Shown here piece by piece: positions 45,998 to 63,392 of a stretch of 64,000 nucleotides of DNA; position 1 is the first letter of the stretch; each line of letters opens with the position of its first letter. The DNA comes from Opitutia bacterium (GTDB lineage: Bacteria; Verrucomicrobiota; Verrucomicrobiia; Opitutales; Seribacteraceae). The DNA is taken from positions 1 to 64,000 of the forward strand of contig PBLJ01000048.1 in the NCBI GenBank assembly GCA_002721705.1, read 5' to 3'. The notes under the pieces were generated by a model. That model worked only from the letters and a program-made list of their open reading frames with translations. It had not been told where the DNA came from and ran no database searches. The position numbers and the translations under genes were made by a program.

Positions 45998-46073
45998 GGC
46001 GAGATAGCTCAGTTGGTAGAGCACGCGACTGAAAATCGCGGTGTCCCCGGTTCGATCCCGGGTCTCGCCACCA
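45998..46073 (+). tRNA. tRNA-Phe (anticodon GAA), CCA encoded
   Basis: GGCGAGA-TA-GCTCAGTTGGTAGAGC-A-CGCGA-CTGAAAA-TCGCG-GTGTC-CCCGGTTCGATCCCGGG-TCTCGCC-ACCA; complete cloverleaf by eye. Confidence 0.96.
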
Positions 46074-47995: not shown

Positions 47996-50299
47996 TTATT
48001 CCGTTGAATACGGAAACGGGATGAGATCCTGAAGCTCGGGAGCGCCTTCTCCTAAGTCGCTCAAAACCTTCTGGTAGGCTTCATCAAAACCACCACGCGC
48101 CTTGATCAGGGGGCTGAAAGGCAAACTATTCGAGCCGGGAAAAGCCTGTAGCACGACTTGGCCTTGCTCCAAGGCGATGCACCAAGTGAAAGCCGGGATA
48201 TCTCCCTCATTGAGGTAACGAGGCTGGTTGAGTTCATCCAAATGGCCGGCATACTCGAAGGAAACGGTCGATAGGTATTGGAGGAAGTTCAAAAACAAAT
48301 TGGCCTCTTCGGAATAACTGATGGTATCCAAGCTTTCATAAAACAAGACGAGTCTTTCCTCGATCTCACGATGAGAGGAAGGCGACGTCCAGTCGGTTGA
48401 CTGCAGGGGATTCTTGAGGATTGCCTTCAACCGCGCGTGGTTCTCCCGCAAACGAGAGGAAAGAGGAATCCCCCATTGCTCACCGCGAGTCAACATGATG
48501 CGGCACAGTTCATCATGGAGGTAGGCCTTGAAGAGGAGTGATATTTCTTGGTTTTGGAGAAGGGCGTCCAACAAGTCCAACAAGGGGGCTCGGATTTGTC
48601 GTTTCTCCTCATCCAGGTACTTCTCCACTTGCTCACGGAGGAAAACGGATTCCGAGGTCAGGTTGGAGTCATGCAACATCTTACCTTGGATGGCATCTTT
48701 AAACCGAATCGTCTCGTAGGAGGTTACAGCTACGCCCGCGGCGATGAAATCCCCCTCCTGAACCACTTTGAACACATCTTTCTGCCTATTGCCGTTGGCA
48801 TCGAATGCCTGCTCCGTTCGGGTCTCGCTGAACGCACCGAAGGAAAAAACTTCCTGCAAGAGCGTTTCCTCCGTGGTGTAGAAAGTACGGCCTAATCGCT
48901 TCTCGCTTGTGACCGTGAATCCACTGAGTTTGTAACGCAAGACGTCGCGGATTCTCGATTTAGCGATCGAGGAAAGGGCTTCGTATTCGGAGAGAGAGTT
49001 AGTCGGATAAATTCCGATCGCTCCAGCTTGAACGTTCGCCCAAGCCTCCGCCGATCCATTGAAGAGAAGCTCGCCATTGAGTTTTCCATTCTCGTTGTCG
49101 AAGAGAGAACGGTACTCGATTACTTTGCTGGCCGCCAGATGAGCCGCCTCCTCGTATGACTCCTGATTCACGGCTTGTTCCAAGGCCTCGAGGTAACTCT
49201 CGAGGTCGGTGGCCTCATGAATTTCGCTCTTCAGCTTCACGTCCTGGCCTTTCTTGGCCGTCATTTCACGAAACCTCTCGAGGCCCTTTTCGAGATCTTC
49301 GTCGATCGAACCCTCCGTGACCTGAAAATCATCCGTTTGGTCCATGTATAGCAGCATGTTCGCAACGATTTCTCGCAGCTCCTGCACGTCGTTCTCGAGA
49401 TCCTCATGGACCACGGCAGCGTCCTGCGCCACCTCGGAAACCGCTTGGGTGTCTTTCCGTCCTTGGGAATAGAGAACCGCCAAGGTCACGCAGGAGGCGG
49501 CAATGGTCAGACCGATGGCAAGCCACAACCATTTCAGACAGCCAAAAGACGAAGAAACCTCGGGCTCCGCGACGGGCGCGGACGAAGCCTCACTCAAGTT
49601 GGGAGCCAAGAGAAAGTCGGCTACTACCTCGATGGCCATCGCCTCGGCCACGGGGTCCTCGCCATCGGGAACGTCTCGCCCCCCTTCTCCCAGCAAGGAC
49701 TCCAATCCAGTGAACATTTTCTTCCGATAGGTCGAATCGGCCATCTTGAACTTGAGGATCGCCTGCAAGTCGCCCATCCGCAGTTCCAACCCCGGTGGAA
49801 GCTCCGTTTCCTCCAAATAGATAGCGAGAAATTTCTTCTTACGATTGAGGGCCAGATTCACCTCGTTGCGACAATTCTCGGAAACGGCCGACCTGGGGGA
49901 AGTGAACATCAGGAACAGGGAGCAATCGATCACGGCTTTGGCGATATGCTCTGGCCAATCATTGCCTGGATCTATGCCTTCGTCGTACCAAATGCGATAC
50001 CCCGCCTCGTGCAGGCGCTGTATTTCCCTGAAGACCAAGCCACCATCCTCATGAGAGTAACTGACGAAGATGAAGGGCTTGTCGCCGGAGTAGGCATCGA
50101 AGGGAGGCACGAGGTGCTGTCGATGCATCTCCTCCGAAATCACGATGCCGGGAAGGTACGATACCGTGGTCCATTCCCGGCAGCCTTCAAACCACACCGA
50201 ATCAATGGGACTGAAGGCTCCGACGTCGAGAAAGCCTTGCACTTCCTTCACGGAGTAAGGTCCGAACTGCTGGTCGTTCTTGTAGAGATAAACGTCCAT
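47996..50299 (-). CDS. GYF_2-like domain + TIR domain + TM + large unknown C-terminal domain (767 aa)
   Basis: MDVYLYKNDQQFGPYSVKEVQGFLDVGAFSPIDSVWFEGCREWTTV (GYF_2-like); PFIFVSYSHEDGGLVFREIQRLHEAGYRIWYDEGIDPGNDWPEHIAKAVIDCSLFLMFTSPRSAVSENCRNEVNLAL (TIR); TM LWLAIGLTIAASCVTLAVLY. Confidence 0.85.
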   Translation of the reverse strand: MDVYLYKNDQQFGPYSVKEVQGFLDVGAFSPIDSVWFEGCREWTTVSYLPGIVISEEMHRQHLVPPFDAYSGDKPFIFVSYSHEDGGLVFREIQRLHEAGYRIWYDEGIDPGNDWPEHIAKAVIDCSLFLMFTSPRSAVSENCRNEVNLALNRKKKFLAIYLEETELPPGLELRMGDLQAILKFKMADSTYRKKMFTGLESLLGEGGRDVPDGEDPVAEAMAIEVVADFLLAPNLSEASSAPVAEPEVSSSFGCLKWLWLAIGLTIAASCVTLAVLYSQGRKDTQAVSEVAQDAAVVHEDLENDVQELREIVANMLLYMDQTDDFQVTEGSIDEDLEKGLERFREMTAKKGQDVKLKSEIHEATDLESYLEALEQAVNQESYEEAAHLAASKVIEYRSLFDNENGKLNGELLFNGSAEAWANVQAGAIGIYPTNSLSEYEALSSIAKSRIRDVLRYKLSGFTVTSEKRLGRTFYTTEETLLQEVFSFGAFSETRTEQAFDANGNRQKDVFKVVQEGDFIAAGVAVTSYETIRFKDAIQGKMLHDSNLTSESVFLREQVEKYLDEEKRQIRAPLLDLLDALLQNQEISLLFKAYLHDELCRIMLTRGEQWGIPLSSRLRENHARLKAILKNPLQSTDWTSPSSHREIEERLVLFYESLDTISYSEEANLFLNFLQYLSTVSFEYAGHLDELNQPRYLNEGDIPAFTWCIALEQGQVVLQAFPGSNSLPFSPLIKARGGFDEAYQKVLSDLGEGAPELQDLIPFPYSTE

Positions 50300-50319
50300 C
50301 GATTTTGGTGTCTACTGCA

Positions 50320-51519
50320 CTATGGCTTCAAGCGCCACTCGGAGTCCTCCAGAACCCATTTCAAGTCGTAGGGGAACTTCTCCCACTGCCCGTTGACTCG
50401 GTAACTTAGCTTCACCATAGCCTTAGTTATTTCATCGTCAAAGGAGATTTCGTCGATACGAAAATCCTCTTTCTTCATATTCAACAAAGTATCTCCTAGG
50501 TGGAGGGCGATCCACGCCAAATTTATCTTCAGCGGGTTGGATCGAGTACTCGAATCGAGGAGCGACTCGAACTTGACTTGCTCATTGTTGAGAATGGATC
50601 CCACCAACTTGGAGTGCTGAAGAGCAAGGGCGACCTTCGCCGCCGACTCGAACTTCGTCTGCTCGGCCGCTTGCTCGGACACCTCCTTTTCCTTGAGGTG
50701 GGCATCGATGAAATACCAACCTGCTCCCAAACTCGAGATTATCACGACGGCCAAGCCGATCCACAATGCCTTTCGCTTGGCCTTGCCGACGCCTCGCAAG
50801 GAAGTGTCTTCTTGGAGCTCGGGCGCGGAAAGGTATTCCGCCCCAACGTCGATGGCCATAGCCGCAGCCGCGGGATCGGCGCCCTCGGGCACGTCGCGCC
50901 CATCCTCCGGGAGCATGCCCTCAAGTCCCATGAACAACTTCTTGCGATAGGTAACGGCAGACATTTTGAATTTCATGATCGCCTGCAGGTCTCCCATGCG
51001 AAGCTCGAGGCCAGGAGGCAAGATCGTCTCCTCCAAGTAGACCGAGAGGAATTTCTTCTTTCGGTTCAAGGCAAGGTTCACCTCATTGCGGCAATTCTCG
51101 GACACGGCCGACCTCGGAGAAGTAAACATCAGGAACAAATCGCAATTAATGACCGCATTGGCTATATGCTCGGGCCAATCGTTACCGGGGTCGATGCCTT
51201 CGTCATACCAAATGCGATAACCCGCCTCGTGGAGTTTTCGGATTTCGCGAAAGACGAGTTCGCCATCCTGATGCGAATAACTGACGAAGACGTAAGGCTT
51301 GTCTCCTACGTAGGCTTCAAAAGGGGGGACAAGATGCCGTTGACGCGCCTCCTCCGCAATATCAATGCCAGGCAAATGGGAGATGGTCGTCCATTCCTCG
51401 CATCCTTCGTACCATGCGGAGTCAATTGCCGTATAAACGCCACTTTGCAAGAGTTGCTGAACGTCTTCGAGTGAATAAGGACCAAACTGTTGGTCGTTCT
51501 TGAACAAAAAGATTTTCAC
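50320..51519 (-). CDS. GYF_2-like domain + TIR domain + TM + short C-terminal domain (399 aa); tandem paralog of 47996..50299
   Basis: MKIFLFKNDQQFGPYSLEDVQQLLQSGVYTAIDSAWYEGCEEWTTI; YVFVSYSHQDGELVFREIRKLHEAGYRIWYDEGIDPGNDWPEHIANAVINCDLFLMFTSPRSAVSENCRNEVNLAL; TM ALWIGLAVVIISSLGAGWYFI. Confidence 0.85.
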   Translation of the reverse strand: MKIFLFKNDQQFGPYSLEDVQQLLQSGVYTAIDSAWYEGCEEWTTISHLPGIDIAEEARQRHLVPPFEAYVGDKPYVFVSYSHQDGELVFREIRKLHEAGYRIWYDEGIDPGNDWPEHIANAVINCDLFLMFTSPRSAVSENCRNEVNLALNRKKKFLSVYLEETILPPGLELRMGDLQAIMKFKMSAVTYRKKLFMGLEGMLPEDGRDVPEGADPAAAAMAIDVGAEYLSAPELQEDTSLRGVGKAKRKALWIGLAVVIISSLGAGWYFIDAHLKEKEVSEQAAEQTKFESAAKVALALQHSKLVGSILNNEQVKFESLLDSSTRSNPLKINLAWIALHLGDTLLNMKKEDFRIDEISFDDEITKAMVKLSYRVNGQWEKFPYDLKWVLEDSEWRLKP

Positions 51520-51522
51520 TGC

Positions 51523-51738
51523 CTAGTCATCTTTGTCCAACCGTTGAGCTCGCCAAAGAAAATAGCCCATGATCACGAAAACGATCAACGCGTATAGGTA
51601 CCTGTCGTAACTTTCCCACAGGTCATCGAATGCACCGCCACTGCCATCGTCCTCGGCTGAACTCTTGGACTCTTGGCCGAAGAGAACGGAGGTCGTGAAA
51701 AAACAAAGGTGAAAGAAAAGGAATAGCAGTCGCGTCAT
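51523..51738 (-). CDS. Small membrane protein (about 71 aa), first gene of the TIR operon
   Basis: MTRLLFLFFHLCFFTTSVLFGQESKSSAEDDGSGGAFDDLWESYDRYLYALIVFVIMGYFLWRAQRLDKDD: signal peptide, acidic linker, TM; 3 bp from the next start. Confidence 0.6.
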   Translation of the reverse strand: MTRLLFLFFHLCFFTTSVLFGQESKSSAEDDGSGGAFDDLWESYDRYLYALIVFVIMGYFLWRAQRLDKDD

Positions 51739-62337: not shown

Positions 62338-63219
62338 TCACTGGGTGTTGAAGTAGATCAAGGCGACCACGCCGGCCAAGGCCAACAGCGCAACCACGAC
62401 CAAAATCCATTTCAAGGCGCCACCTGGCTTCTTGGCTTCTCTCAAACCTTTGGCTTCCGCATGGAGGTTAAGCATTTGCTCGGCAAGCAAACGCTCCTTT
62501 TGAATCAACTCGGCAAGGGCTGGCTCGTCATAGCCTGCCGAAACAACGGCATGCGCATAAGAAACGTAGGCTTGCTCCAATTTATACTGATCGTCTTTTT
62601 GTCGAAGATCCTCGATACGGGTTAAAATTTCCGTGGCTCCGCTCACGCGAATGCCTTGCTCCACCGCAGTACGACCTATCTCGGGCATCAATACCTTGTC
62701 GTGCTCCTGCTTGAGACGAACCATTTCCGCATGCAATACGTCTCGAGATCGCGGCTCAAAGGCATTGGCCTTGTCATAGGCTGCGGAGGCCGCGGCCAAC
62801 TCGGCGGGATCAGGCGCCGGCTCCGCTTCCTCCTCCTCTTCCGCAGAGAGGCTTTCCTCGACTACAGCGGGAACCGCTTCGCCCTCAGGTTGTGGTTCTT
62901 GGGCAGGACCAGTGGAAATATCATCGGCTGCAGGCTGCGCGGTCGCGGTCTCCTCGGCACTGGTTGCAGCTTCAGGCGATGAAGACGGCTCAGGCGCGGC
63001 TTCCGGTTCAGGAGCATCCTTGGGTTCGGGATCCGCGGGGGCGGGCGAAGCCAAGCCAAGAAAAGCGAACTTCTCACTGGAGAGAGCATACCACGTATCC
63101 AAATCATCCTTCCAAGCCAAGGTATCCGGACCCGCTTCACCCGATCCATACTTGGCTTTTACCTGATCCTCGGAAAAAGGACCTTGGTTTTCACCGCCGA
63201 TGTGCAAGAAAATCTCCAT
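62338..63219 (-). CDS. GYF_2-like domain protein with Pro/Ala/Glu linker and C-terminal TM anchor
   Basis: MEIFLHIGGENQGPFSEDQVKAKYGSGEAGPDTLAWKDDLDTWYAL; long PEPEAAPEP linker; C-terminal LKWILVVVALLALAGVVALIYFNTQ. Start placed at internal Met. Confidence 0.7.
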   Translation of the reverse strand: MEIFLHIGGENQGPFSEDQVKAKYGSGEAGPDTLAWKDDLDTWYALSSEKFAFLGLASPAPADPEPKDAPEPEAAPEPSSSPEAATSAEETATAQPAADDISTGPAQEPQPEGEAVPAVVEESLSAEEEEEAEPAPDPAELAAASAAYDKANAFEPRSRDVLHAEMVRLKQEHDKVLMPEIGRTAVEQGIRVSGATEILTRIEDLRQKDDQYKLEQAYVSYAHAVVSAGYDEPALAELIQKERLLAEQMLNLHAEAKGLREAKKPGGALKWILVVVALLALAGVVALIYFNTQ

Positions 63220-63392
63220 GCGTGTAACCCCAGTCAGGTTCAAACAAATACTTCTAGGACTACTTCCCGTGATCACAACTCCAAAAAAGCCTCGAGACCA
63301 CGAGATTCGGACATCCCTTTGAAGGTTGCAACCACCATGCCTTTCCTCAACTTGACTTGCCTCGGCAGCGCCTTTGGCATATTCTTGAAAAT

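What the first reader, a model, noticed from the sequence alone, without database searches (positions are those of the whole stretch)
47996..51738. Operon with tandem GYF_2-TIR-TM paralogs and a small membrane protein: candidate transmembrane TIR receptor/effector system
Seen: three tightly packed minus-strand genes (gaps of 3 and 20 bp). Two encode the same order of an N-terminal GYF_2-like domain, a TIR domain, a ~40-aa linker and one TM. The paralogs are near-identical through GYF_2+TIR (IWYDEGIDPGNDWPEHIA..SPRSAVSENCRNEVNLALNRKKKFL) but differ completely after the TM (about 110 aa versus about 490 aa). Established: TIR domains of anti-phage systems (Thoeris ThsB, TIR-STING, TIR-SAVED, short pAgo-TIR) are typically NADases or signal producers with a catalytic Glu; a Glu sits in SENCRNE here. 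Inference: positive residues before the TM (KAKRKALW) suggest TIR in the cytoplasm and the C-terminal domain outside. Duplication with diversified outer domains would suit two sensors feeding one TIR output. I know of no described defence system with this layout, but a non-defence role in envelope stress or signalling is equally possible.
Basis: partly seen in the sequence, partly recalled or inferred. Interest (0 to 1): 0.82.

Follow-up and report, generated by a model that had tools for sequence, protein, structure and literature searches.

The report
Membrane TIR proteins with swapped tails
Two neighbouring genes in a marine bacterium related to Opitutus encode membrane-anchored TIR proteins (an immune-type enzyme domain) whose cell-facing halves match but whose outer halves were exchanged, and one outer half comes from a membrane protein of a poorly understood GTPase-based conflict system.

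Summary
Three minus-strand genes (71, 399 and 767 aa) are tightly packed, and both larger proteins have GYF_2, TIR_2 and one TM. "Near-identical" is too strong: the TIR domains are 86% identical, the GYF_2 domains 60%. The TIR fold and the catalytic-position Glu146 are supported by an AlphaFold model and a family-wide alignment.

(1) The 767-aa gene is the ancestral one. It has a full-length, syntenic orthologue (54%) in the one congener, preceded by the same small membrane gene. The 399-aa gene is an old, constrained paralogue.
(2) GYF_2-TIR proteins of this bacterial family differ after the TM (FGE-sulfatase, LamG, Ig, others). The gene is inherited vertically amid housekeeping genes, not mobile.
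(3) The outer domain of the 767-aa protein is 40% identical over 430 aa to the C-terminal third of the one-TM "scaffold" protein in the same genus's GAP1-N2/double-GTPase operon (hhalign E 4.6e-31). The host carries that operon elsewhere, broken by contig ends.
(4) The 399-aa outer domain resembles small exported lipoproteins.

Best reading: single-pass TIR signalling proteins, TIR inside, exchangeable periplasmic domains. The 767-aa protein may be a TIR arm coupled to the GTPase system. Activity and any defence role are untested.

The parts
51523..51738 (-). Small membrane protein, 71 aa: signal-peptide-like N-terminus, acidic stretch, second weak hydrophobic segment, short charged tail; first gene of the operon
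   Evidence: ORF; homologue (36%, E 4e-10) directly upstream of the single GYF_2-TIR-TM gene in the congener G001:C28; no significant Pfam family
50320..51519 (-). W399: GYF_2-TIR-TM-short outer domain, 399 aa, GTG start
   Evidence: AlphaFold mean pLDDT 78.6 with GYF_2 and TIR mostly above 90
51349..51519 (-). W399 GYF_2 domain (aa 1-57)
   Evidence: Pfam PF14237 1e-9
50920..51294 (-). W399 TIR domain (aa 76-200)
   Evidence: Pfam PF13676 4.8e-20; Foldseek best hits SPARTA TIR-APAZ 1.4e-5, SARM1 4.4e-5
51082..51084 (-). W399 Glu146, catalytic-position Glu in SENCRNE
   Evidence: conserved across the homologues aligned (at least 90% in A4); aligns with Cat1 ...CWDE
50707..50763 (-). W399 transmembrane segment (aa 253-271), preceded by KAKRKAL
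   Evidence: hydropathy 1.82; helix 246-271 in model
50323..50673 (-). W399 outer domain (aa 283-399)
   Evidence: 34% and 29% identical to exported lipoprotein-like 158/156-aa proteins of other genomes of the class
47996..50299 (-). W767: GYF_2-TIR-TM-large outer domain, 767 aa
   Evidence: full-length orthologue in G001, 54% over 771 aa
50129..50299 (-). W767 GYF_2 domain (aa 1-57)
   Evidence: Pfam PF14237 4.8e-6, 26.7 bits against cut-off 25.8
49700..50074 (-). W767 TIR domain (aa 76-200)
   Evidence: Pfam PF13676 3.5e-19
49862..49864 (-). W767 Glu146, catalytic-position Glu
49472..49528 (-). W767 transmembrane segment (aa 258-276)
   Evidence: hydropathy 2.24
48005..49267 (-). W767 outer domain (aa 345-765), homologous to the C-terminal third of the GAP1-N2-operon scaffold protein
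   Evidence: 40.5% over 430 aa to G001 scaffold, E 5e-97; hhalign E 4.6e-31 over 407 columns against scaffolds of other families; tree; AlphaFold pLDDT 82.6, no solved fold matched

Best explanation
The two large genes encode single-pass inner-membrane TIR signalling proteins: N-terminal GYF_2 (a likely protein-recruiting module) and a probably enzymatic TIR in the cytoplasm, one TM, and an exchangeable domain in the periplasm. In the 767-aa protein the periplasmic part is homologous to, and probably copied from, the corresponding part of the scaffold of the host lineage's own GAP1-N2/double-GTPase system. The most likely job is a TIR output arm that joins, or senses the same partner or ligand as, that envelope-spanning system through the shared domain; clustering would then switch on NAD+ cleavage or signal production. 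The 399-aa paralogue brings the same cytoplasmic output to a second, lipoprotein-type sensor. Shown: domain order, homologies, conservation of the Glu, vertical inheritance. Inferred: topology (two indirect lines), enzyme activity, coupling, the biological trigger.
For: TIR fold and Glu146. Outer domain of W767 matches the scaffold C-terminus: one search found ~1000-aa proteins in 15 other genomes of the class; their neighbours in loci read include GAP1-N2, GYF_2 and MotA/ExbB proteins; hhalign 99.9%, E 4.6e-31; 40-46% identity with the same genus's scaffold against 27-32% with other genera of the family; the best shuffle reached 25 bits against 309 observed; in the tree both TIR-fused copies group with the family's own scaffolds (100/100). 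The host has the GTPase system: DO-GTPase2 and GAP1-N2 at the end of C19, scaffold tail plus GYF_2-RDD, MotA/ExbB and ExbD-position genes at the end of C61. Topology: scaffold TM has 4-7 Lys/Arg before and 1-3 after; the W399 outer domain has exported lipoprotein-like relatives; relatives have 3-5 Lys/Arg before the TM. Purifying selection. Kaur et al. 2020 (PMC7159879) describe effectors coupled to GTPase-system cores by shared adaptor domains, and TM or extracellular domains in GAP1-N2 systems.
Against: The TIR gene is not in the GTPase operon, so coupling rests on domain sharing alone. Genus g2 has the GYF_2-TIR-TM gene in 7 of 8 genomes but no GAP1-N2, so the core protein does not need that system. 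Charge bias around the W767 TM itself is weak (1 before, 2 after). GYF_2 is common in these genomes, so sharing it with the GTPase operon means little. No enzyme or interaction data exist.
Confidence: 0.45

Rival explanations
1. Stand-alone envelope sensors: the TIR proteins act alone as periplasm-sensing receptors (cell wall, carbohydrate or protein ligand), and the scaffold-derived part was simply recruited as a sensor domain with no physical link to the GTPase system.
For: The C-terminal parts in the family are mostly surface/ligand-type domains: FGE-sulfatase, LamG, Ig. Genus g2 has the gene without any GAP1-N2. Wider relatives carry LRR, trypsin-like, FHA, DUF6273.
Against: The scaffold C-terminus was found only in GTPase-type scaffolds and in these TIR proteins, and only in two genomes that also hold that system.
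Confidence: 0.33
2. A dedicated anti-phage system of Thoeris/SPARTA type: TIR senses infection and depletes NAD+ or makes a nucleotide signal for a partner effector.
For: TIR with conserved Glu; best structural neighbours are NADase TIRs of SPARTA and SARM1; weak PADLOC hits to ThsB, Aga_TIR and SAVED_TIR models.
Against: PADLOC and NCBIfam hits are all far below anything diagnostic. No partner gene in the operon; neighbours are a CitMHS-type transporter, rhamnulokinase, tRNA-Phe. Vertical inheritance, no plasmid or IMG/VR relative and only one distant phage-record hit. STALD search negative, but its control did not ring.
Confidence: 0.12
3. Non-enzymatic TIR scaffold: the TIR domains only oligomerise, for housekeeping envelope organisation.
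For: Gene family near-ubiquitous in its bacterial family (a TIR relative without GYF_2 in about 33 of 37 genomes); strong constraint.
Against: Glu146 retained in the wide alignment, including the soluble paralogue and relatives from several other phyla, which a pure scaffold would not need.
Confidence: 0.1

Closest known systems
GAP1-N2-type GTPase-centric conflict systems (Kaur et al. 2020, PMC7159879)
   Same: W767 shares the TM-distal domain of the scaffold encoded beside GAP1-N2; GYF proteins and extracellular domains occur in those systems; TIR is listed as an effector of related GAP1-N1 and vWA systems
   Different: W767 is encoded at a separate locus; section 29 of that paper lists neither a GYF_2-TIR-TM protein nor a TIR fused to this scaffold domain
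Widespread bacterial TIR_2 family with PY.FVSY.H.D / IWYDEGIDPG motifs (Bacillota, Bacteroidota, Desulfovibrio, Planctomycetota and others)
   Same: Same TIR clade, often one TM, variable C-terminal domains (LRR, FGE-sulfatase, trypsin-like, DUF6273)
   Different: The N-terminal GYF_2 fusion was found only in this family of Opitutia-class bacteria
Toll-like / IL-1 receptors
   Same: Works like: one TM, cytoplasmic TIR, exchangeable outside domain
   Different: Reverse order (TIR at N-terminus, sensor at C-terminus), no close sequence relation, conserved catalytic-position Glu
SPARTA TIR-APAZ, SARM1, ThsB, Cat1 (NADase or signal-making TIRs)
   Same: TIR fold; Glu aligned with the conserved Cat1 position
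   Different: No Ago/APAZ, SAM/ARM, ThsA or CRISPR partner; membrane-anchored

Membership tests
TIR domain superfamily (catalytic type) | TIR fold | tested here: met
   Pfam TIR_2 above cut-off; Foldseek to SPARTA/SARM1/TLR TIRs
TIR domain superfamily (catalytic type) | Glu at the catalytic position | tested here: met
   Glu146 conserved
TIR domain superfamily (catalytic type) | NAD+ cleavage or nucleotide product | not testable with these tools
   needs protein
Thoeris | ThsA (SIR2/SLOG, macro-TM or other) partner gene next to the TIR gene | tested here: not met
   Operon partner is a 71-aa membrane protein; flanks are transporter and rhamnulokinase
Thoeris | STALD sensor domain in the genome | tested here: inconclusive
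   0 of 42 genomes but the control set did not ring either
Thoeris | ThsB family profile match | tested here: not met
   PADLOC ThsB at best 2e-5; Pfam ThsB_TIR below cut-off or absent in the window proteins
SPARTA (short pAgo-TIR) | APAZ domain and short Argonaute | tested here: not met
   No such domain in the proteins; only about 160 columns (the TIR portion) align
GAP1-N2 GTPase-centric system | Genome encodes GAP1-N2 and double-GTPase | tested here: met
   G000:C19, GAP1-N2 2.6e-20; DO-GTPase2 29.2 bits over cut-off 27
GAP1-N2 GTPase-centric system | Gene lies in the GAP1-N2 gene neighbourhood | tested here: not met
   Window is on contig C49; GAP1-N2 on C19 and the rest on C61. No other core gene of that operon is found in the window
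GAP1-N2 GTPase-centric system | Shares a domain with a core component | tested here: met
   W767 aa 345-765 versus scaffold C-terminus
GAP1-N2 GTPase-centric system | Physical or functional coupling | not testable with these tools
   needs pull-down, deletion or a complex model

The most novel reading that the evidence does not exclude
A TIR effector plugs into an envelope-spanning GTPase/MotA-ExbB-type machine through a copied periplasmic scaffold domain: periplasmic events read by a GTPase conflict system are turned into cytoplasmic NAD+-based signalling by a transmembrane TIR, a bacterial Toll-like receptor with reversed domain order and swappable ectodomains.
Probability: 0.3. Interest if true: 0.8.

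Novelty: new variant of a known kind. Interest (0 to 1): 0.55.

Why it matters
Most characterised bacterial TIRs sense infection from inside the cell. A vertically kept family of membrane TIRs with exchangeable outer domains would be a natural, experimentally accessible analogue of Toll-like receptors. The domain shared with the scaffold gives a first testable link between TIR signalling and the GAP1-N2 GTPase systems, for which the one paper found here that names them reports genomic predictions.

Tried and rejected
Mobile defence island: rejected. Synteny with the congener, housekeeping neighbours, no plasmid match at 1e-15, no IMG/VR relative, one distant TIR-only phage-record hit. Thoeris/SPARTA membership: not met. 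STALD co-occurrence: inconclusive, control silent. Fold of the W767 outer domain: no PDB match by fold or sequence. Small protein: no family; DUF1206 is below cut-off. A CcmD-like resemblance was considered from memory but no such Pfam hit appeared. Promoter/terminator scan: at chance level. Literature: one paper holds 'GYF domain' and 'TIR domain' together with 'bacteria', not as a fusion in the passages read; GltJ/AgmX GYF literature was not in the library.
Full report
**Observation.** The three minus-strand ORFs, their gaps and the repeated GYF_2-TIR-TM order are real. I call the proteins W767 (47996-50299), W399 (50320-51519) and small (51523-51738). The claim of near-identity needs correction. 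W399 and W767 are 73.8% identical over aa 1-240: 85.6% in the TIR and about 60% in GYF_2. TIR synonymous divergence is about 2.5, near saturation, with dN/dS about 0.05. Both copies have therefore been kept under constraint for a long time.

**TIR identity.** Pfam TIR_2 is far above cut-off in both. An AlphaFold model of W399 (34-row alignment, mean pLDDT 78.6, GYF_2 and TIR blocks mostly above 90) matches SPARTA TIR-APAZ (1.4e-5), SARM1 (4.4e-5) and TLR TIR domains in the PDB. Glu146 in SENCRNE lies at the position of the conserved TIR Glu (aligned with Cat1) and is retained in the wide alignment of homologues, including the soluble paralogue and relatives from several phyla. Activity itself is untested.

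**Host and relatives.** The genome is an 89%-complete draft of 95 contigs. In G001 the same spot (CitMHS-type transporter on one side, rhamnulokinase on the other) holds one GYF_2-TIR-TM gene. It is a full-length orthologue of W767 (54% over 771 aa) and is preceded by a homologue of the small gene; no W399 was found. The ancestral operon is thus most simply small plus W767, with W399 between them in this species only. The saturated dS means the duplication could also predate the split, with loss in G001.

**Family picture.** Of 37 genomes of the bacterial family searched (G000-G036), 15 have a GYF_2-TIR match and about 33 have a TIR relative matching without GYF_2. Those read in detail run about 480-550 aa, and the two scanned end in FGE-sulfatase (counts made by me from the table). 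The TIR tree gives a GYF_2-TIR clade (96/89) beside a soluble-TIR clade (96/97), largely following the genera. After the TM, GYF_2-TIR proteins carry FGE-sulfatase, FGE plus LamG, FGE plus bacterial Ig, or (with a second GYF_2 before the TM) an unassigned tail. Seven of eight genomes of genus g2 have the gene; loci read place it between a cytochrome bc-type operon and an endonuclease III-like gene (gene names from sequence inspection). No GYF_2-TIR at 1e-25 was found in 387 other genomes of the phylum. The TIR clade itself is widespread with LRR, trypsin-like, FHA, FGE or DUF6273 partners.

**Where the large outer domain comes from.** A class-wide search with the W767 C-terminus hit ~1000-aa one-TM proteins in 15 other genomes. 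In loci read, their neighbours are GAP1-N2 proteins, and where scanned a DO-GTPase2-like protein (below cut-off), a GYF_2 protein and a MotA/ExbB-family protein. This is the GAP1-N2-type GTPase-centric conflict system of Kaur et al. 2020 (PMC7159879). The two profiles compare at 99.9% probability, E 4.6e-31 over 407 columns. In the congener's own GTPase operon the scaffold is 1227 aa. W767 is 40.5% and its G001 orthologue 46.4% identical to that scaffold's last 430 aa (E 5e-97 and 3e-126), against 27-32% to scaffolds of other genera in the family. Shuffled sequence reached at most 25 bits against 309. The tree puts the two TIR-fused copies together (100/99) inside the family's scaffolds (100/100); which scaffold is nearest is left open there. 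In the family search the only GYF_2-TIR frames bearing this region are these two proteins. The predicted outer domain (pLDDT 82.6, pTM 0.69) matches no solved structure.

**Does the host have the GTPase system?** Yes, split by contig ends. A DO-GTPase2 (29.2 bits, cut-off 27) and GAP1-N2 (2.6e-20) run off the end of C19. C61 ends in the last 51 aa of the scaffold (65% identical to G001's) followed by GYF_2-RDD, a MotA/ExbB-family protein (89% identical to G001's) and two one-TM proteins in ExbD position.

**Topology.** Two independent lines put the TIR inside and the tail outside. The scaffold TM has 4-7 Lys/Arg before and 1-3 after it, and W767 places the same domain on the same side of its TM. 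The W399 tail is 34% and 29% identical to small proteins with lipoprotein-type signal sequences (lipobox read by eye). The charge signal at the W767 TM itself is weak (1 against 2), while relatives show 3-5 against 0-2. This is inference, not a measurement.

**Mechanism.** Best reading: single-pass TIR signalling proteins with exchangeable periplasmic domains. For W767 the exchanged part is homologous to the host lineage's GTPase-system scaffold. Kaur et al. describe effectors tethered to GTPase-system cores by sharing an adaptor domain with them. W767 would fit that logic as a TIR output encoded in trans. Against it, the gene is not in that operon and genus g2 has GYF_2-TIR-TM proteins with no GAP1-N2, so the coupling is at most specific to W767-type proteins. 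The rival of a stand-alone sensor with a borrowed ectodomain is nearly as likely.

**Defence or not.** Nothing points to a mobile anti-phage cassette: housekeeping neighbours, conserved synteny, vertical tree, no plasmid match, one distant phage-record TIR hit, no IMG/VR relative. PADLOC and NCBIfam matches are weak TIR cross-hits. A chromosomal defence or conflict role through the GTPase system stays open.

**Verdict.** Observation confirmed, interpretation partly supported. New variant of a known kind (TIR effector/receptor); the specific new point is the domain shared with a GAP1-N2 scaffold.

Noticed in passing
L159:1187-14305 (G001:C38), L183 (G000:C61:22000-32081), L157 (G000:C19 end): The GAP1-N2/double-GTPase operon of this lineage includes a MotA/ExbB-family protein (weak PADLOC ZorA similarity, 2e-6) and two one-TM ExbD-position proteins, next to the scaffold and a GYF_2-RDD protein; section 29 of Kaur 2020 does not mention a stator-type pair in GAP1-N2 loci.
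   Followed up: partly
G001:C39:44216-44851 (L185:4217-5083) and G000:C34:4-396 (L184): The N-terminal part of the GTPase-system scaffold exists alone as a 288-aa protein in the congener (49% over 216 aa) and at a contig edge in this genome; with W767 carrying the C-terminal part, scaffold parts occur separately in this genus.
   Followed up: partly
G001:C38, G004:C90, G009:C13, G007:C93: The soluble TIR relative lies about 30 kb from the GAP1-N2 gene, same strand, in four genomes of three genera; may only reflect conserved gene order.
   Followed up: no
window 62338-63276 (minus): Another GYF_2 protein with one C-terminal TM (312 aa).
   Followed up: no
window 45998-46073 (plus): tRNA-Phe beside the CitMHS-type transporter gene, about 2 kb from the operon.
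   Followed up: no
G000:C35:2-1399 (L087): A separate protein with a C-terminal TIR domain (330-449), with relatives in G001 and G007, outside the clade studied here.
   Followed up: no
L054:4794-8106 (uncultured Clostridiales, CACZAM010000001.1): Four consecutive TIR-family genes of 261-293 aa in tandem on the same strand.
   Followed up: no
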